The position numbers and the translations under genes were made by a program. From assembly GCF_003945595.2 (NCBI RefSeq), contig NW_024104502.1, positions 186,001-250,000 on the forward strand: a DNA stretch of 64,000 bases, given 5' to 3'. Below are positions 27,949-60,738 of the stretch, one piece after another; the stretch's first letter is position 1; each line of letters begins with the position of its first letter. A model generated the notes under the pieces. That model was not told where the DNA came from and did not search any database. It saw only the letters and a program-made list of their open reading frames with translations. Origin of the DNA: Pipra filicauda. Taxonomy: Eukaryota; Chordata; Aves; Passeriformes; Pipridae.

Positions 27949-28170
27949 GTGCCAGGGGAGGTTCAGGTGTGGCATCAGGAAGATTTCTTCATGGAAAGGG
28001 TGGTTGAGCATTGGAAGGGGCTGCCCACGGAGGTGGAGTCCCCATCCCTGGAACTGTTCAAGAAATGACTGGACATAGCACTCAGTGCTCTGGGCTGGGT
28101 GACAAGGTGGGGTTCAGTCAAAGTTTGGACTTAATGATCCTGGAGATCTTTTCCAACCGTAATGCTTCTG
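27949..28170 (+). repeat. CR1 LINE 3'-end fragment between TG repeats
   Basis: The sense CR1 end is readable: ccaggggaggttcaggtgtg, gaagatttcttcatggaaag, ggtggttgagcattggaagg, then 'tgatcctggagatcttttccaaccgtaatg'. It is truncated at its 5' side where the TG repeat at 27914-27948 ends. Its 3' terminus runs straight into a much longer TG array, so it is flanked by the same kind of simple repeat on both sides. Confidence 0.93.
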
Positions 28171-28331
28171 TGTGTGCACATGTGTGTACGTGCGTGTGGG
28201 TATGTGTATGTGTGTACATGTATGTGTACTTACGGGTACATGTGTGTGCACGTGTGTACATGTGTGTGTACTTATGTGTACATGTGTGTTCACGTGTGTG
28301 CACATGTGTGCACATGTGTGTGTGTACTCCT
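28171..28331. repeat. Alternating purine-pyrimidine TG/CA array
   Basis: About 160 bp of almost strictly alternating purine and pyrimidine bases: TG, TA, CG and CA dinucleotides such as tgtgtgtgcacatgtgtgta. It contains many self-complementary acatgt, gcac/gtgc and gtac words. Such DNA can adopt Z-form or cruciform structure. It begins at the CR1 3' end. The open frames that cross it on both strands are simple-repeat artefacts. Confidence 0.92.
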
Positions 28332-39900: not shown

Positions 39901-42225
39901 GAAGCCCAAACAAAAACCCATATCCCTCTGTGCCAGACCCCAGAGCTGCAGAGAGAGCAGGTCTATCCTGGGAAGCCTAAAGCCTTGACTCACAAACTGC
40001 TTAAGCACGTCTAAAATGAGTCACTTGCCCTGGGACACACTTAAAATGAGGCGTCTGCATTAGCTCTACACTTAACGAGGGAGCTTGACCTGAGCTCCGC
40101 CTCTCCCTCCTGTCCTCCCTTCCACTCACAGGCTGAGGGTGGGATATTTTCGTGGAAACTCAGTGATAAAGGATCAGGAGTTCATCCCCACGTGTTGTGG
40201 GGAGTCACAAGCCCTTGGGGCATGCCAAGGACTCTTGGTACTCACAGCCTTGGAGCCTGCAAGTCACACACCTGCTCATGAGACCCCTGGTGTGGCTCAG
40301 TGAGGCCAGAGTGAAAATAAATGAAGGCTTGCCTAAGTCCAGATGTTTCTGGATTCAAAGGGACTTGGAAAATATGAAGGCCTGAATGAAAAACTGGGAA
40401 TCAACATTTAAACATAAAGCTGTGGGGGTAGGTTTGAGAAGCAGTGAGCAGATATTCTCTCAGCCAGTTAAAAGGGTAACTCTGTGAATAGCCCATTCTC
40501 CAGTTCACCAAAGAACTGCCAAAGGAAGAAGGATGTCTCAAACTGTGCCCCCTTTCCAGAATATTTGCTTCAAATTTTTTATCAAAATTAAGATACTTCA
40601 CATTTCAGCAAACTTTTTCTTTTTTCAGGATTGCGTTTTTCGGTTTTAAAGATATAAATTAAATTCTGTAAATGTCATCTCAGTACATATGAACATCTAT
40701 TTTGACAGTATTAAATGGCATATTTTGATTAATGAAGAGTTCCCACTTTAATCCAGGCTGGATTTCTTTCTGAAATGGGAAGAAATATCCTCTGCCTGCA
40801 AAGCTTTGTTCAGCTTTACATAAATGCTGAGACACTAAGAAGAGAAGATCTGCAGCATTACACTGAAATACGTGTTATATGCTTATATTGTAGAGCAGCA
40901 GATCTGAAAATCATGCTCAGCCCTGGGATTACTCACATGCAAATGTTCTCTTTTAGAGGTATACAAGAAGTTGGACATTTTGGAAAAATGAAACCACATT
41001 CCTAAGAAGCCCCAATGGCCTGAGGCCACAAAGATGAGCCTTGTTAGGGTCAGACTGAGATTTCAGCTTGCAGCCCCGACTTATTCAACTGTATATATGT
41101 CTTCATATAGATCTGTTAATCCTGCATGGCATCATAATGTATCATTCTCGAAGGATCTGATTTAGTAAAAGCCTCTGAGATCCCTGTGTTACTGGCTGCG
41201 ATGTTACACACTACTGGTGCAAAAGTGAAGAAAACCAACTTTCTCCAGCATTAGCACTGATTGTAGTGAGCTGGTCAGGGTGGTTTTACCAGATCTTCCC
41301 ACATCATCATCCAATTTATTATATTTCTGCTAAAATATATTGTCCAATGGGATGAATAGGTTAAGGATTCCTTTGTGACTTTGTTGCTGTTGTGGCTATG
41401 TGCAGGTAAAAATATCTTAGGATTTGAAAGTTCAGTAAATTGCACTCTTTAGAAAAAAAAATCTTTGACGCCGTACTTAATGCAGGTGCAGAGCTGCTAC
41501 TGCTAGTGTTGGTGCTCAGGGAGAAGCTTCTCCTCTCACCATCACTTCTGTCAGTGATGACAGTGATACCTGTCCTCATGACAGGTATCTCATTTATGGC
41601 ATCTCATGCCTAGAGCTGAAGCCCTGATTTCACCTCTGGTGTCACCCACTGGCTTTTAATGCCATCCTCTGGTATAGCTGGTGCCACCACTTGGTTTAGG
41701 GGGTGATCACTTGCAGTCAGGTGTGTTTGAAACCACCAGGCACCATTTTCCTCTTGTTCCCTCTGTATCTGCCCGGCGTTGGTTTCAGTGCCAGCAGACA
41801 CTGTCCTGTAGGACAAGGCAAGGACAGCTTGCCTATACTAGACAGCCTGATGTAACAGACTGTCCACTTTCCATTAGACTTAGGGAAAACAGAGTGAAGG
41901 GAAGGGCATGTCAAGCAACAAGATGTCCTTACTCTCTGCTAATGTAAATCCATTTTGTAAAAGCACAGGCTGCGTGGGATGGGCACACAAGTTCTTCAGC
42001 AAACAGCCTTGGCCACTGCCGACTACATCATCTTCTGCACTCCTGAGCTGGAAAGCCCATCTCTCAACCAGCTCTGACCTCAAGAGCTGTTCCTTGCTTG
42101 ATGCAGGCAAGAAGAGAAGGCATATACTGCTTTTCAAGTAGAAGGTCCTTCTTTCCCCCCACTAGTAAAAGAACTACTGTCCTTGCAAGGGGTTTGAAGC
42201 AGCTTCTTGCTTAAGTCAATAAAAT
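39901..42225. other. Noncoding stretch
   Basis: Nothing recognisable as a gene, RNA or transposon. Open frames are all under 90 codons and lack domain-like composition. Confidence 0.55.
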
Positions 42226-42625
42226 CAAAGAATCATAGAATTGTACAATCATTAAGGTTGGAAAAGACTTCCAAGATCATTCAGTCCACCCTGTGCCTGA
42301 CCCCCACCTTGTCCCCCAGCCCAGATCACTCAGTGCCATGTCCAGTCCTTCCCTGGATACCTCCAGGGATGGGGACTCCACCACCTCCCTGGGCAGCCCC
42401 TTCCAAGGCTTGATCACCCTTTCCACAAGGAATTCTTTCTGATGTCCAGCCTGAACCTCCCCTGGCACAGCTTGGGGCCATTTCCTCTTGTCCTGTCACT
42501 GGTTCCCTGGGAGAAGAGGCTGAACCCCACCTTGCTGCAACCTCCTATTAGGTAGTTGCAGAGTGACATGGTCTCCCCTGAGCCTCTTTTCAGACAGAAG
42601 GATTTGGATCTGGCCATTCCAACAG
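42226..42625 (-). repeat. CR1 LINE 3'-end fragment, different subfamily
   Basis: In antisense: aaagaatcatagaattgtac, aaggttggaaaagacttcca, 'agatcattcagtccacc', then 'ccatgtccagtccttccctggatacctccagggatgg' and 'cccctgggagaagaggctgaaccccacc'. The 'aagatcattcagtccacc' wording marks a CR1 subfamily other than that at 32550 or 53112. The copy reaches about 400 bp before truncation. Confidence 0.93.
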
Positions 42626-56039: not shown

Positions 56040-56051
56040 GCTGCTTGTGAT
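56040..56051. repeat. Target-site duplication, 3' side of the LINE
   Basis: gctgcttgtgat is repeated without mismatch at 60727-60738. The two copies bracket the whole element. Confidence 0.9.
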
Positions 56052-56063
56052 CATCATCATCAT
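56052..56063 (-). repeat. (ATG)4 3' tail of the LINE
   Basis: Four ATG units (catcatcatcat on the plus strand) end the element just before the duplication. A short simple-repeat tail, instead of poly(A), is usual for RTE-type elements. Confidence 0.85.
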
Positions 56064-56070
56064 GGCTAGG

Positions 56071-56084
56071 CTTCGCGAACGAAG
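56071..56084 (-). other. Perfect hairpin in the LINE 3' UTR
   Basis: In the sense (minus) strand the 14 bases cttcgttcgcgaag pair as a 5-bp stem (CTTCG with CGAAG) around a TTCG loop. It lies 13 bases downstream of the stop codon and 7 bases before the ATG tail. Reverse transcriptases of several non-LTR elements recognise a 3' stem-loop; that role here is inferred. Confidence 0.6.
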
Positions 56085-56097
56085 ATTTGGGAAGGCT

Positions 56098-59000
56098 CTA
56101 TCCACATTTGCTGCAGGCACGCTGGTGGCTTATGAGGCCAATACGTGACAGACAAATCCGATTGCAAAAGGCACAGCAGAAAGACTCCTTAGATGGTGTA
56201 TTCTGCAATACACGGTTCTTTCTGCGTTGCCTTTTTTCCTCGAGGGTGATCCTGCGTGTGTTCTCAAAGGAGACAGCTGCGTTATAGATGGTGTGTCTCC
56301 AGGCCTCCCGATTGGAGGCCAGAGTAGACCAGTGATGAAGATCAATATGGCCAAGGCTGAGATGTTGTTTCAGGGAGTCCTTGTATCTTTTCTTCGGGGC
56401 TCCTCTCATGCGGCAGCCAGTGGCAAGTTCACCGTAAAGCAAGATCTTAGGGAGGCGGTGGTCCTTCATCCTGGAGACGTGCCCTGCCCAACGCAGCTGT
56501 GTTCTCATCAGCATGGCCTCGATACTTGTGATAGCTGCTTGCTCTAGAACAGATGTATTGGTCACATAGTCTGACCAGTGGATGTTTAGAATTGTACGGA
56601 GGCAGCGTTGATGGAAGCGTTCTAAGAGACGCAGGTGGTGGCGGTAGATGACCCATGATTCAGATCCATATAAGAGAGTAGACAACACAATGGCTCTGTA
56701 AACACTGATCTTGGTGCTTTTCTTCAAGTGTTTATTACGCCATACTCTTTTATGGAGTTTTCCAAAAGCACTATATGCCTTTGCTAATCTGTTGTCTATC
56801 TCTCCGTCAATCTTACCATCTGAGGAGATGAGGCTACCGAGGTAATTAAACTGTTGGACTGATTTGAGCTCTGATTGACCAATGGTGATGTGGGGATGAT
56901 GGGGGACATCCTGAGGTGCAGGCTGATGGAGGACCTCTGTCTTCTTTAAGCTGACCTCCAGACCAAAGAGCTCAGCAGCATCTGCAAAGCAGGATGTTAA
57001 ACGCTGCAGAGCTGCTTCTGTGTGGGCAACAAGGGCGGCGTCATCAGCATAAAGCAGCTCCCGGACAAGATGGTTTAAGGTCTTAGTGTGGGCCTTCAGT
57101 CGCCTTAGATTGAATAGACTTCCATCAGTACGGTATCGAATGTAGATACCGTCCTGATCATTGAGGTCTGCTGTGGCCCTTTGGAGCATCATGCTAAAGA
57201 AGACGGTGAATAGGGTAGGAGCGAGAACGCAGCCTTGTTTCACACCATTCTTAATTAAAAAGGGCTCAGAAAGTGCATTGCCATATCTGACTTGGCCATG
57301 CTGATCCTCATGGAGTGAGATAATCATTTTGAGGAATTTAGGGGGACAACCTAAACGTTCCAAAATCTGCCACAGACCTTTTCTGCTCACAGTGTCAAAA
57401 GCCTTGGTGAGGTCGACAAAGGTTACATAGAGACCTTTGTTCTGTTCCCTACACTTCTCTTGCAGTTGTCTGAGGACAAATACCATGTCTGTGGTGCTCC
57501 TGTTGGCTCTGAAACCACACTGACTTTCAGGAAGGATACCTTCTGCTATAGTGGGTATTAGTCTGTTCAAGAGTATTCTTGCCAGGATTTTGCCAGCAAT
57601 GGAGAGTAGAGTAATACCACGATAGTTTGAGCAGTCAGATTTAATTCCTTTCTTCTTATACAAGGTGATGATGACTGCATCACGAAGGTCAGATGGTAGT
57701 TCGCCGAGTTCCCAACAGCGCACCACGAACTCATGGAATTTGGTGTGGAGTGCAGGGCCCCCATGTTTCCAGATTTCAGGTGGAATTCCATCAATCCCAG
57801 CTGCCTTGCCGATTTTCACCTGCTGTATGGCCTTGAGGGTTTCTCCTAAAGTGGGGGCAGTATCCAATTCATATTTTACTGGTTGTTGTGTGATGGACTG
57901 AATTGCTGAGTCTTGGACTGTGCGGTTGGTACTGAATAGAGTCTGAAAGTGTTCAGACCATCGATTCAGAATGGAGGTTTTATCTGTCAGAAGTGTTTGA
58001 CCATCAGCGCTGAGTAGAGGGCTTTGTACCTGGTATGTAGGCCCGTATGCTGTTTTCAAGGCCTCATAGAAACCTCTGTGATCACCTGTGTCTGCACATA
58101 ATTGAGTTTTTTCAGCTAGATCAATCCACCATTTGTTCTGGATGTCACGGAGTTTCTGTTGGAGTTTGCTGCACGCAAGACGAAAGGCTGTTTTTCTTGC
58201 GTGACAGGATGGCAGTGCAAGGTGTGCTTGGTGGGCGGTTCTCTTCTTCCTCAACAAGTCTTGGATTTCTTGGTTGTTTTCGTCAAACCAATCCTTGTTC
58301 TTCTTGAGGGAGAACCCTAAGGATTCTTCGGAGGATTGCAGGATGCTGTTTTTAATATGATGCCAGATTGTTTCAGGAGAGGAATCTGCAGAAACTGTGG
58401 GAATGTTTTCGAGCCTAGTTTGAAGGTTTGTCTGGAAACTGTCTCTTACTGTGGCTGATTGGAGATTGTTAACTTGGAGTTTTCTCCTTGGGATGCTGCC
58501 CCTTTTTGGTTTGATTTTGATCTTGAAATTGAGTTTACAGCGCACCAGCCGATGGTCTGTTTGGCATTCTGCGCTGGGCATCACGCGGGTATGGTGGACA
58601 TCGCGGACATCTCTCCGTCGCACCAGGACATAATCGATGAGGTGCCAATGCTTAGAACGGGGGTGCATCCAGGTTGTCTTCAGACTATCTTTCTGCTGAA
58701 AGATAGTATTAGTGATGGTGAGTTGTTGCTCTGCACAGAATTCTAGCAGAAGTCGACCATTATCATTGCAGTTTCCAACACCATGCTTGCCTAATACACC
58801 TTTCCATGCTTCAAAATTCTTACCTACTCTGGCGTTGAAATCACCAAGGATAATGATCTTATCGTCTGCAGGGACCTTTTGGGTAAGGAGGCGCAGGTCA
58901 GTGTAAAATTTATCTTTTTCAGCAGGGTCAGCTTGGAGAGTTGGGGCATATATACTAAAGATGACAACATGTTGTTTGTTGTTTAGTGGAAGGCGTAGGG

Positions 59001-59394
59001 AGATAATGCGGTCAGAGTGACCTGTCGGCAGATTTTCGAGTTTAGGAACAATAGAGTTTTTGATCATGAAGCCGACTCCTGAGAGGTGTTTTTCGGTTCT
59101 GGGCTTGCCTGACCAAAAGAGTGTGTAACCGGCACCATGTTCTCTGAGGCTGCCTTCTTCATGAAGGCGAACTTCACTGAGAGCGGCAATGTCGATGTTG
59201 AGACGAGCCAGCTCATGGGCAATTAGGGCAGACCGACGCTCAGGACGTCCGCTATCTGCAGAATCGAGCATGGTTCTGATGTTCCAACATGCTAGAGTTA
59301 ATTTAGGTACACCTTTGGAGGCAGGTGCGTGCCTTTGACTTTTCTTTGTGCGACCGCATTGGAGGAAGATGCCCGTTGGCCTGCGGTTAACCAA
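56098..59394 (-). CDS. Endonuclease-reverse transcriptase of the RTE-like LINE
   Basis: The protein that would nick the target and copy the element RNA into DNA. Residues are counted from a nominal UUG at 59394. The apurinic-type endonuclease (about 35-290) shows WNIRT (N38), SEVR (E74), SIYAP, GDFN (184-187), IDYVLV and TDH (279-281). The reverse transcriptase (about 520-900) shows GIDGIPPE, QCGFR, FVDLTKAFD (659-667, D661), GVKQGC, YADD (782-785) and a YLGS motif. A C2HC finger closes the protein: C1074, C1077, H1090, C1094. No RNase H domain is visible. All catalytic motifs and the TAG stop at 56100-56098 are intact. Odd point: the frame is open from a stop at 59424-59422, but its first Met (residue 42) lies inside the endonuclease core, so no usable AUG precedes it. 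It resembles proteins often labelled 'craniofacial development protein 2-like' or 'endonuclease-reverse transcriptase'. Confidence 0.93.
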   Translation of the reverse strand: MVNRRPTGIFLQCGRTKKSQRHAPASKGVPKLTLACWNIRTMLDSADSGRPERRSALIAHELARLNIDIAALSEVRLHEEGSLREHGAGYTLFWSGKPRTEKHLSGVGFMIKNSIVPKLENLPTGHSDRIISLRLPLNNKQHVVIFSIYAPTLQADPAEKDKFYTDLRLLTQKVPADDKIIILGDFNARVGKNFEAWKGVLGKHGVGNCNDNGRLLLEFCAEQQLTITNTIFQQKDSLKTTWMHPRSKHWHLIDYVLVRRRDVRDVHHTRVMPSAECQTDHRLVRCKLNFKIKIKPKRGSIPRRKLQVNNLQSATVRDSFQTNLQTRLENIPTVSADSSPETIWHHIKNSILQSSEESLGFSLKKNKDWFDENNQEIQDLLRKKRTAHQAHLALPSCHARKTAFRLACSKLQQKLRDIQNKWWIDLAEKTQLCADTGDHRGFYEALKTAYGPTYQVQSPLLSADGQTLLTDKTSILNRWSEHFQTLFSTNRTVQDSAIQSITQQPVKYELDTAPTLGETLKAIQQVKIGKAAGIDGIPPEIWKHGGPALHTKFHEFVVRCWELGELPSDLRDAVIITLYKKKGIKSDCSNYRGITLLSIAGKILARILLNRLIPTIAEGILPESQCGFRANRSTTDMVFVLRQLQEKCREQNKGLYVTFVDLTKAFDTVSRKGLWQILERLGCPPKFLKMIISLHEDQHGQVRYGNALSEPFLIKNGVKQGCVLAPTLFTVFFSMMLQRATADLNDQDGIYIRYRTDGSLFNLRRLKAHTKTLNHLVRELLYADDAALVAHTEAALQRLTSCFADAAELFGLEVSLKKTEVLHQPAPQDVPHHPHITIGQSELKSVQQFNYLGSLISSDGKIDGEIDNRLAKAYSAFGKLHKRVWRNKHLKKSTKISVYRAIVLSTLLYGSESWVIYRHHLRLLERFHQRCLRTILNIHWSDYVTNTSVLEQAAITSIEAMLMRTQLRWAGHVSRMKDHRLPKILLYGELATGCRMRGAPKKRYKDSLKQHLSLGHIDLHHWSTLASNREAWRHTIYNAAVSFENTRRITLEEKRQRRKNRVLQNTPSKESFCCAFCNRICLSRIGLISHQRACSKCG

Positions 59395-60570
59395 CCGGGT
59401 GAAAGTGGAGATGAGCTTTGTTTAGGCCACCTTTTCTAGGCCCCTCTCCGAGTGGAGCAAGCAGTGCTGTCCTTGGAAAGGCTGCTTGGTCGTTCAGGGT
59501 GCTGCCTCAAGAGACTGTCATCTCCGGTCAGTCTCAAATGACCAATATCCTGAACCGCCTGCATGCAGGGTTGAGTCTGCGGCTCCCAGTGCATCTTTCA
59601 CCTGCCGTTTCGACCCTCGCCCGTCGCTACAGGACTTTTTGCATGTGGGTAAAGCCTTCAAGCCTGCGCAATGGATTTTTTAGGTGAGATGCAGTATGCG
59701 CGGAACTGAACCCACCCTTTAATCCCGAGGTTCATCTGCCAGGGCCGAGCGAGCTTGGACGGTGGCAGTGAGGTCCTCAGGACGTAGGTTTGATTAGAGT
59801 GACCTTCTCTTAGATGGATGGCCTTACAGGGCTAAGCGAGCTCCATCAGCCCGGGTTTGGAATTAGAGTTGACCTTCTCCTAGGATGACTGCCAGAAGGC
59901 TAATGAGCTCATCCTGCCCACAGATTTGTTGTATCCGACCCTGTAGTTTTGACCTGTCTGGCATGGGTGACCCTACTGAAGGCATGTACCATCGCCAGCG
60001 TAGCTCGCAACCACATAGGGGTATACAGGTTGCATTCTTACTATTAAAAATGATTAGGCCAAGTCTTACACTACCTAGGTTTCTGCCATCTGTCTATATT
60101 CAATCCCAGGGAAGCACCCAGGAACAGCCCTTTGTCCTGACCAACCTTACAGTATGTAACAGATAAATCCAGGACATACCAAACCTGGGCAGTAGCCACG
60201 GGTGAACCAAAAACAAACAAACGAGCGAAACTGTTCTGGCCACCGTACCCATCTAGGGCTCGAGGCCCTCTCTAGGCCCCAGTCCGACCAAGAACTCCAA
60301 GCCCCAGAGGAAACTATTAACCACTCTGATCTTGTCCTCCCCCCACCGTGTTTCCTCATATCTTCCCACGCACTACTTACCTGACCACCCTCCAGTCCGA
60401 GGACCCCCACAGCCTGCCTGGTACCCCACCCCCCTCCCCAAACCAGACCGGCAAACCTCTGTGTATTCCGAGGCTTCAATTCTCCTCTCTCTCCTTTCTC
60501 ACGAGGGCACAAGGTCACGCCGGCGAAGCTCCCTCTATCCTTTCCCGCTGGGGGGGGAGGGGACCGGGGG
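59395..60570 (-). other. 5' leader of the LINE
   Basis: Non-coding in the sense orientation: apart from a frame that is open through the GC-rich array to 60147 and has no early ATG, stops are frequent and no ORF1-like protein is visible. It holds the 67-bp duplication and, at 60310-60540, a stretch that is purine-rich in the sense strand. Presumed to carry promoter and translation signals. Confidence 0.6.
59787..59921. repeat. Imperfect 67-bp tandem duplication in the LINE leader
   Basis: Unit A (59787-59852) and unit B (59854-59921) share ggtttg..attagag.tgacctt, then ctcYtag, then 'ggctaa.cgagctc' and 'atc..gccc'. Several indels show it is older than this insertion, so it is probably a standing feature of the family. 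Confidence 0.7.
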
Positions 60571-60726
60571 CGGCCCCGCGCGGGACCCCGGGGCGGCCCC
60601 GCGCGGGACCCCGGGGCGGCCCCGCGCGGGACCCCGGGGCGGCCCCGCGCGGGACCCCGGGGCGGCCCCGCGCGAGAACCGCGGGGGCAACCCCCGAGGC
60701 CGCGCGAGAACCGCGGGGGCAACCCC
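60571..60726 (-). repeat. GC-rich tandem array at the LINE 5' end, likely promoter
   Basis: Four near-identical 23-bp units (cggccccgcgcgggaccccg plus ggg) start at 60571, 60594, 60617 and 60640; a fifth begins at 60663 and changes into two roughly 32-bp units starting at 60668 and 60700 (ccgcgcgagaaccgcggggg...). The array ends exactly at the target-site duplication. Nearly every unit carries several CpGs, none visibly deaminated. Tandem promoter monomers at the 5' end are known from other LINEs such as mouse L1; the promoter role here is inferred. Peptide-like frames across it (Arg/Gly/Pro-rich on both strands) come from base composition. Confidence 0.85.
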
Positions 60727-60738
60727 GCTGCTTGTGAT
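60727..60738. repeat. Target-site duplication, 5' side of the LINE
   Basis: gctgcttgtgat is identical to 56040-56051. Normal AT-rich genomic sequence follows at once (actgcatactttattcttac). Confidence 0.9.

What the first reader, a model, noticed from the sequence alone, without database searches (positions are those of the whole stretch)
56040..60738. Intact, full-length non-CR1 LINE in a bird genome
The element has both ends defined by a perfect 12-bp duplication, an uninterrupted endonuclease-RT frame with every catalytic motif, an undecayed CpG-rich 5' array and a short-repeat tail. Bird genomes are dominated by CR1, nearly always 5'-truncated and broken. An RTE-like element in this state suggests a young, perhaps still active lineage. 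Patchy RTE elements in birds have been attributed to horizontal transfer with nematodes (AviRTE); whether this is that family, or another, cannot be told from the window.
Basis: partly seen in the sequence, partly recalled or inferred. Interest (0 to 1): 0.9.

Follow-up and report, generated by a model that had tools for sequence, protein, structure and literature searches.

The report
Young intact AviRTE in suboscine bird
This is a freshly inserted, undamaged copy of AviRTE, a jumping gene that birds are thought to have caught from another animal, in a bird genome that holds dozens of nearly identical undamaged copies, a state that its discoverers did not find.

Summary
In detail: a 4,675-bp LINE on the minus strand (56052-60726) between perfect 12-bp target-site duplications, with one open EN-RT frame of 1107 codons. 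It is AviRTE, the horizontally transferred RTE of tropical birds and filarial nematodes (Suh et al. 2016): 9 of 10 published primers match in order, and the diagnostic amplicon is exactly 126 bp. The protein tree puts it with manakins inside a suboscine clade. Suh et al. found only broken full-length copies. Here 33 of 42 scored ORF matches in this genome have no stop; 35 of 42 are at least 98% identical. The top 21 by protein score differ by 0.76% on average (minimum 0.16%) and show purifying selection on inherited variants (31 synonymous: 9 nonsynonymous). Copies have independent TSDs, a variable GC-rich 32-bp/23-bp 5' array, and the 'Tn-TA' insertion signature (T|A junction, T-tract at -14 to -12), reported for BovB and called unresolved for birds. 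So: a known family in an unreported state, a very young, probably active lineage. Translation start is unexplained: the first in-frame AUG follows the first endonuclease strand. Horizontal transfer was not retested.

The parts
56040..56051 (.). target-site duplication, copy at the element's 3' side
   Evidence: perfect 12/12 match to 60727-60738
56052..56063 (-). (ATG)4 tail
   Evidence: sequence; the published AviRTE 4R primer covers this junction with 1 mismatch
56064..56097 (-). 3' UTR, 34 nt (46 nt with the tail; AviRTE is given as ~40 bp)
56098..59421 (-). single open frame, 1107 codons plus stop; EN, RT, C-terminal Cys/His motif
   Evidence: model mean pLDDT 74.9, pTM 0.55; best PDB fold matches LINE-1 ORF2p, TM-score about 0.4
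58597..59286 (-). AP-like endonuclease domain (PF03372)
   Evidence: E 3.7e-14
56836..57657 (-). reverse transcriptase domain (PF00078), YADD at 57040-57051
   Evidence: E 1.2e-34; Y for the family's F is shared with the Manacus copy P0351
56113..56175 (-). C-terminal Cys/His zinc-finger-like motif (CAFCNRIC..SHQRAC)
   Evidence: four Cys and one His column at least 90% conserved in 41 aligned sequences
59269..59271 (-). first in-frame ATG (codon 51), after endonuclease strand 1 (residues 41-50) and Asn47 (catalytic by recall)
59372..59725 (-). 5' UTR stretch conserved at nucleotide level in related RTEs (a carp, a ray, five records without organism), read there in different frames
   Evidence: tblastn, 7 of 9 queries at E <= 1e-3, best 1e-10, three frames; reversed and flank controls 0, Markov controls 1 hit in 30 shuffles
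59656..59781 (-). diagnostic AviRTE amplicon, exactly 126 bp
   Evidence: published primers AviRTEint-F/R, 2 mismatches each
60560..60726 (-). GC-rich 5' array: 23-bp units (x5.5) then 32-bp-type units; 28.8 32-bp units in another copy (L026)
60727..60738 (.). target-site duplication, copy at the element's 5' side; junction CAGT|A in sense orientation

Best explanation
A recently inserted, structurally intact copy of AviRTE, an autonomous RTE-clade LINE, in a suboscine (probably manakin or near-manakin) genome, from a young source lineage that has produced dozens of intact copies. Proposed cycle. (1) RNA is made from a promoter in the variable 32-bp/23-bp GC-rich array; copies start at different array units, 14 of 20 with GG (inferred). 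(2) The one protein (EN, RT, Cys/His motif) is translated from a non-AUG or otherwise unconventional start upstream of codon 47 (inferred). (3) The endonuclease nicks the complementary strand at a T|A step with a T-tract a little over one helical turn upstream (pattern shown, enzyme action inferred). (4) The freed end primes reverse transcription on the (AUG)n tail, and the second nick leaves 10-18-bp duplications (outcome shown). Recent mobility is shown by very low divergence and independent TSDs; mobility today is inferred.
For: AviRTE identity: 9 of 10 published primer sites in the right order and orientation with 1-5 mismatches, 126-bp amplicon exact, ATGATG tail under primer 4R; ~40-bp 3' UTR, ~3.2-kb ORF and a 13-bp TSD in the paper. 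Host lineage: 15 bird rows (14 fragments plus the window) are one clade at 100/100, window with Manacus and Lepidothrix at 100/99, in a tree of 53 chosen rows. Youth: 33 of 42 scored ORF matches without stop, 35 of 42 at 98% or more; 40 of 40 scored 3' ends at 98% or more; of the 40 places closest in the non-coding 5' UTR, 23 are in the ORF list and 21 of those have no stop; mean pairwise divergence 0.76% over 21 copies; end branches down to 0. Selection: inherited variants 31 syn: 9 nonsyn against neutral nonsyn/syn 2.4-2.7. Integration: T|A 15 of 20, TTT at -14..-12 12 of 20, p about 8e-15 and 6e-12.
Against: Primer 1F (from the published element's 5' side) has no match (best 5 of 18 mismatched), primer 1R with 5 of 22 is matched by one of five random sequences, and the 5' UTR here is longer than the published ~800 bp. 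The fetched copies are mostly the top of a protein-ranked list, so they lean to intact ones; 3 of 3 near-complete copies fetched from outside that list have 1-nt indels. Private changes are also short of nonsynonymous ones (52:55; 11:6 in the three broken copies), and in the 20 copies shared with the 5'-UTR ranking shared and private variants no longer differ (24:9 and 63:49, Fisher 0.11), so part of the selection signal comes from inherited variants that look private in a small sample. The conserved 5' UTR folds no better than shuffles (z 0.01). The window copy itself lacks the T-tract. No expression or polymorphism data.
Confidence: 0.9

Rival explanations
1. A separate RTE family, sister to AviRTE, that reached suboscines independently.
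For: Primer 1F is missing, the 5' end carries an array not in the published text that I read, and the 9 matched primers carry 24 mismatches in 187 nt.
Against: The mismatch level is like the 0.133 distance between the Manacus and Gymnopithys AviRTE consensuses; the 126-bp amplicon, tail, 3' UTR and hosts agree; the 14 named bird fragments form one clade with the window, so no second bird family is seen among them.
Confidence: 0.06
2. A recently dead burst: many young copies, but no longer mobile.
For: The window copy's end branch is 0.0034 and the median is 0.0029, not zero; some near-complete copies are already broken.
Against: Some copies have zero or one strictly private change in 3,707 sites (L010 and L012: 0; L009, L013, L017: 1); 33 of 42 scored frames uninterrupted.
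Confidence: 0.25
3. Contaminant or assembly artefact.
For: Patchy taxonomic distribution; several copies lie on contigs under 100 kb.
Against: The window's left flank is unique and part of a 706-kb contig; copies sit at different sites with their own TSDs, 12 of the 20 on contigs over 1 Mb; CR1-like 3' ends nearby (motif recalled).
Confidence: 0.01
4. Old vertical inheritance in birds rather than horizontal transfer.
For: Not excluded by the data here: no non-suboscine bird or nematode sequence was available.
Against: Among rows that show an organism, the only birds are suboscines; the published AviRTE tree needs nine transfers; the nearest other named relatives are fish, a ray and invertebrates.
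Confidence: 0.05

Closest known systems
AviRTE (Suh et al. 2016, PMC4844689), suboscine subfamily
   Same: Primer sites, 126-bp 5' UTR amplicon, ~3.2-kb ORF, ~40-bp 3' UTR, ATG-type tail, TSD of about 12-13 bp, suboscine host, kinship with RTEs of aquatic animals.
   Different: Intact: the paper states that all full-length copies had frameshifts and stops. Here 33 of 42 scored ORF matches are uninterrupted. Longer 5' end with a GC-rich tandem array; primer 1F site absent.
BovB (RTE clade; PMC13295347 for its insertion signature, passages read)
   Same: RTE-clade LINE with EN and RT, microsatellite-like tail, Tn-TA insertion signature with A as first TSD base.
   Different: AviRTE is described as only distantly related; tail (ATG)n instead of (CAA)n; here the T-tract peaks at -14 to -12, against about -10 in that paper.
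RTEs of amphioxus, carp and mantis shrimp (P0002, P0022, P0034)
   Same: 63-73% protein identity over 98-99% of the query (70-73% in the alignment); the 5' UTR of further carp and ray relatives (P0045, P0125) is conserved at nucleotide level.
   Different: The window departs at five positions that are at least 95% conserved in 40 relatives; four of the five residues occur in named manakin copies, the fifth in P0325, whose organism is not shown.
CR1, the usual bird LINE
   Same: Non-LTR retrotransposon with EN and RT, dispersed by target-primed reverse transcription (recalled).
   Different: Different tail (CR1 has an octamer microsatellite); here an ATG tail and an RTE protein.

Membership tests
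AviRTE | matches the published AviRTE primers in order and orientation | tested here: met
   9 of 10 primers, 1-5 mismatches, each better there than anywhere else in the window; int pair spans exactly 126 bp. Primer 1F not found; 1R (5 mismatches) is at chance level.
AviRTE | 3' UTR ~40 bp ending in ATG repeats | tested here: met
   46 nt with the tail; 4R primer site 1 mismatch
AviRTE | single ORF of ~3.2 kb with EN and RT | tested here: met
   1107 codons, PF03372 and PF00078
AviRTE | 5' UTR ~800 bp | tested here: not met
   1,455 nt from the 5' end to the first in-frame ATG, the extra part including a GC-rich array whose length varies between copies. I treat this as a structural difference, not a defining one.
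AviRTE | sequence distance to AviRTE consensus within the family range | tested here: inconclusive
AviRTE | shared by filarial nematodes and other tropical birds | not testable with these tools
   No such DNA held; no nematode named among the listed hits
RTE clade LINE | AP-endonuclease plus RT protein, no LTRs, short repeat tail, TSDs | tested here: met
RTE clade LINE | Tn-TA insertion signature (as reported for BovB and plant RTEs) | tested here: met
   TTT at -14..-12 in 12 of 20, T|A in 15 of 20. The window copy has T|A but no TTT there.
CR1 | octamer 3' microsatellite | tested here: not met
   tail is (ATG)4; octamer from PMC8665684. The CR1 protein was not compared directly.

The most novel reading that the evidence does not exclude
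A presently mobile AviRTE in a living bird: a horizontally acquired LINE that did not die out but runs as one evolving source lineage, transcribed from a repeat-unit GC promoter array that grows and shrinks between insertions, translated without an AUG, and carrying in its 5' UTR an RNA stretch conserved with RTEs of a carp, a ray and other animals.
Probability: 0.5. Interest if true: 0.78.

Novelty: new member of a known kind. Interest (0 to 1): 0.62.

Why it matters
AviRTE was the first reported transfer of a transposable element involving birds, and that report found no intact copy, so how it works could only be inferred. A genome with dozens of intact, nearly identical copies makes the mechanism and present activity of a transferred LINE directly testable. 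It also supplies a bird example of the Tn-TA insertion signature, which a 2026 paper says remained to be elucidated for birds, and a non-CR1 source of new insertions in a passerine.

Tried and rejected
Scans of viral contigs and genome contigs gave no relative. Rfam gave nothing on the window and only a chance mir-150 match (E 3.2) in the 5' region; a home-made HDV-type ribozyme scan hit only the GC array, and one of four shuffles also gave hits, so a 5' ribozyme is not supported. The conserved 5' UTR is not more stable than shuffles. No other AviRTE or AviRTE-tailed SINE was seen in the rest of the window (best E 0.25). NCBIfam gave only matches below cut-off. An empty-site test inside the assembly was not possible: the left flank has one place only; the right-flank query did not complete. 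Copy number could not be counted: about 40 matches are scored per query, so 42, 40 and 40 are lower bounds.

Dropped rows: 16 of 36 end-fetched copies gave no usable TSD: 12 none found (two of these at a contig end), and 4 chance matches not at the junction (L020, L023, C1398, C1127); the position table printed still holds C1398 and C1127, the tests do not. L029 (older, broken) was left out of the divergence means and variant counts. The tree uses 53 rows that I chose out of the window and 359 listed proteins. L001-L008 repeat copies also fetched as L009-L015 and L030 and were not analysed apart. The T at -1 is favoured a little by construction, because a G there would extend the TSD into the tail; the T-tract is not.

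Papers: PMC4844689, read parts 1-3 of 6, the figure legends and Table 1; PMC13295347, PMC8665684, PMC12651973, PMC6542046, passages only; all others, search listings. That no intact AviRTE is in print rests on the listings in one open-access library, not on all literature. The CR1 tail motif, bird mutation rates, the catalytic role of the Asn, the grouping of the named birds as suboscines and mouse L1 promoter units are recalled.
Full report
What is there. The element lies on the minus strand at 56052-60726 between perfect 12-bp repeats. From 5' to 3': a GC-rich tandem array, a 5' UTR, one open frame of 1107 codons, a 34-nt 3' UTR and an (ATG)4 tail. Pfam finds an AP-type endonuclease (3.7e-14) and a reverse transcriptase (1.2e-34); an AlphaFold model with mean pLDDT 74.9 and pTM 0.55 has human LINE-1 ORF2p as its best PDB matches, at TM-scores near 0.4. 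CpG observed/expected is 0.51 in the frame and 0.93 in the array, against 0.17 and 0.09 in the flanks.

Which organism. CR1-like tails occur in the window (6 matches against 0.43 expected; motif recalled). The best named relatives of the endonuclease piece are birds that I know as suboscines: Manacus, Lepidothrix, Willisornis, Pitangus and Myiozetetes (14 rows). In a tree of 53 chosen endonuclease rows these 14 fragments and the window form one clade (100/100), and the window joins Manacus and Lepidothrix (100/99) with the shortest end branch of the bird rows. Other named relatives, amphioxus, carp, an electric ray, sea urchins, an oyster, a coral, sea slugs and shrimps, are at roughly 63-78%. 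Only named rows can be read this way; most of the 120 rows listed per search show no organism.

Which family. Suh et al. (PMC4844689) print ten AviRTE primers. Nine match the element in order and orientation with 1-5 mismatches, each better than at any other place in the window; eight of them also beat five random sequences, while 1R (5 mismatches) is tied by one. The short diagnostic pair spans exactly 126 bp, as published; primer 4R covers the 3' UTR and ATG tail with one mismatch; primer 1F has no match. ORF size, 3' UTR size and TSD size agree. The mismatch load (24 in 187 nt) is like the 0.133 distance published between the Manacus and Gymnopithys consensuses. I therefore file it as AviRTE. 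The full consensus could not be read.

What is unusual. The paper says that every full-length copy found had frameshifts and stops. The genome holding this window (1.08 Gb, 1549 contigs) gave 42 scored ORF matches: 33 of 42 without an internal stop (six of these with a frame of 1105-1142 instead of 1107 codons), 35 of 42 at 98% identity or more. This list is ranked by protein score and is a lower bound. Two other rankings agree: 40 of 40 scored 3' ends are at least 98% identical, 30 of them at places not in the ORF list, and of the 40 places closest in the non-coding 5' UTR, 23 are in the ORF list and 21 of those have no stop. Of the other 17, three that reach the 3' end were read; each has one or two 1-nt indels in the frame, one also a stop. 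So intact and freshly broken copies coexist.

Age. Twenty-two copies (the 21 best by protein score and the worst of the 42) were aligned over about 3,707 sites. Without the last, older one (L029, 3.5% away) the mean pairwise difference is 0.76%, minimum 0.16%. The window copy has 5 strictly private changes, none a CpG transition; two others have none. Its end branch on the tree is 0.0034, and the tree is ladder-like, as from one evolving source lineage, though only 2 of 19 inner branches are strongly supported. With a recalled bird rate of 2-3e-9 per site and year this is about 0.5-1.7 million years. In a simulation, 13-31% of neutral copies would stay open at 0.3-0.5% divergence and 2% at 1%, so the open frame fits that age without host use.

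Selection. Variants carried by two or more of 21 copies are 31 synonymous to 9 nonsynonymous; the neutral expectation is 2.4-2.7 nonsynonymous per synonymous (p about 1e-10). Private ones are 52:55, closer to neutral (Fisher 0.0025) but also short of nonsynonymous ones. In the 20 fetched copies that are also in the 5'-UTR ranking, three broken ones included, the shared variants are 24:9 (p 3e-7), and the contrast with private ones (63:49) is no longer significant (Fisher 0.11). The simple reading is that the source lineage has been under protein constraint, and that many private variants are inherited from unsampled copies.

Integration. Of 36 copies with both ends fetched, 20 have a usable TSD of 10-18 bp, 17 of them perfect, each at a different site. 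The junction is T|A in 15 of 20, and TTT occupies -14 to -12 in 12 of 20, against 4.5% at T|A sites of the flanks (p about 6e-12); the count is 8, 4 and 4 at the neighbouring offsets -15, -16 and -13, and 0-3 at the others. This is the Tn-TA signature that PMC13295347 describes for BovB and plant RTEs, while saying that fish and bird RTEs remain to be elucidated (passages read). The window copy has CAGT|A but no T-tract.

The 5' end. Other copies carry more of the array: L026 has 28.8 units of 32 bp, then 5.5 units of 23 bp, and is 5,546 bp long with its own 12-bp TSD. Unit number and unit type (GGGGTTGCCCC or GGGGTCGCTCC) differ between copies, and 5' ends fall at several phases. Fourteen of 20 TSD-bounded copies begin with GG (p 5e-6 against the window array's GG frequency), as if from capped RNA starts; this is inference. 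A repeated-unit promoter, as in mouse L1 (recalled), would explain it.

Translation. No ATG lies in frame before codon 51, and 18 other ATGs precede it in the element, none opening this frame. Codons 41-50 form the first endonuclease strand of the model and hold Asn47, the catalytic Asn by recall. Of 40 aligned relatives, 10 extend that far and all 10 have WN[VI]RT; 29 records begin at or after the Met, perhaps only because gene callers ask for ATG, and one is a fused model. An AUG start at codon 51 would remove the strand. So an upstream, non-AUG or otherwise unusual start is likely. Codon 16 is ACG in all 22 copies where the Myiozetetes fragment and P0032 have Met; that is a lead only.

The conserved 5' UTR. 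The 350 nt before the frame match the N-terminal translations of seven of nine relatives tried, including a carp (P0045) and a ray (P0125), in three different frames that overlap on the same bases. Such conservation is of nucleic acid, not protein. It overlaps the part of the 5' UTR that Suh et al. call conserved and used for PCR, and they report that AviRTE SINEs keep a 5' UTR piece. A role in RNA recognition or translation is inferred; single-sequence folding gives no support.

Verdict. Known family, confirmed observation, and a state not found in the library searched: an intact, very young, probably active AviRTE lineage with a readable insertion signature.

Noticed in passing
59372-59725 (-): The same nucleotides match relatives' N-terminal translations in three different frames, so this 5' UTR stretch is conserved as RNA or DNA between this bird element and RTEs of a carp, a ray and others.
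   Followed up: partly
L026 401-1327: A 28.8-copy 32-bp GC-rich array, some units scrambled, at the 5' end of another AviRTE copy; real variation or long-read error is not settled.
   Followed up: partly
about 60375-60385 (-): A splice-donor-like CAG|GTAAGT in the 5' UTR, seen by eye; no splicing was tested.
   Followed up: no
24960, 42220-42241, 49972, 53115, 9767: CR1-like 3' tails (motif recalled).
   Followed up: no
28170-28323: Degenerate GT/AC-rich microsatellite with a 42-bp higher order.
   Followed up: no
L020 (oriented) 344 and 1227, and after its 3' end: Repeated stretches on both sides of this copy suggest insertion into a repeat; its TSD could not be called.
   Followed up: no
P0016 (amphioxus protein record): Ankyrin repeats annotated as fused to a member of this RTE family; perhaps a gene-prediction artefact.
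   Followed up: no
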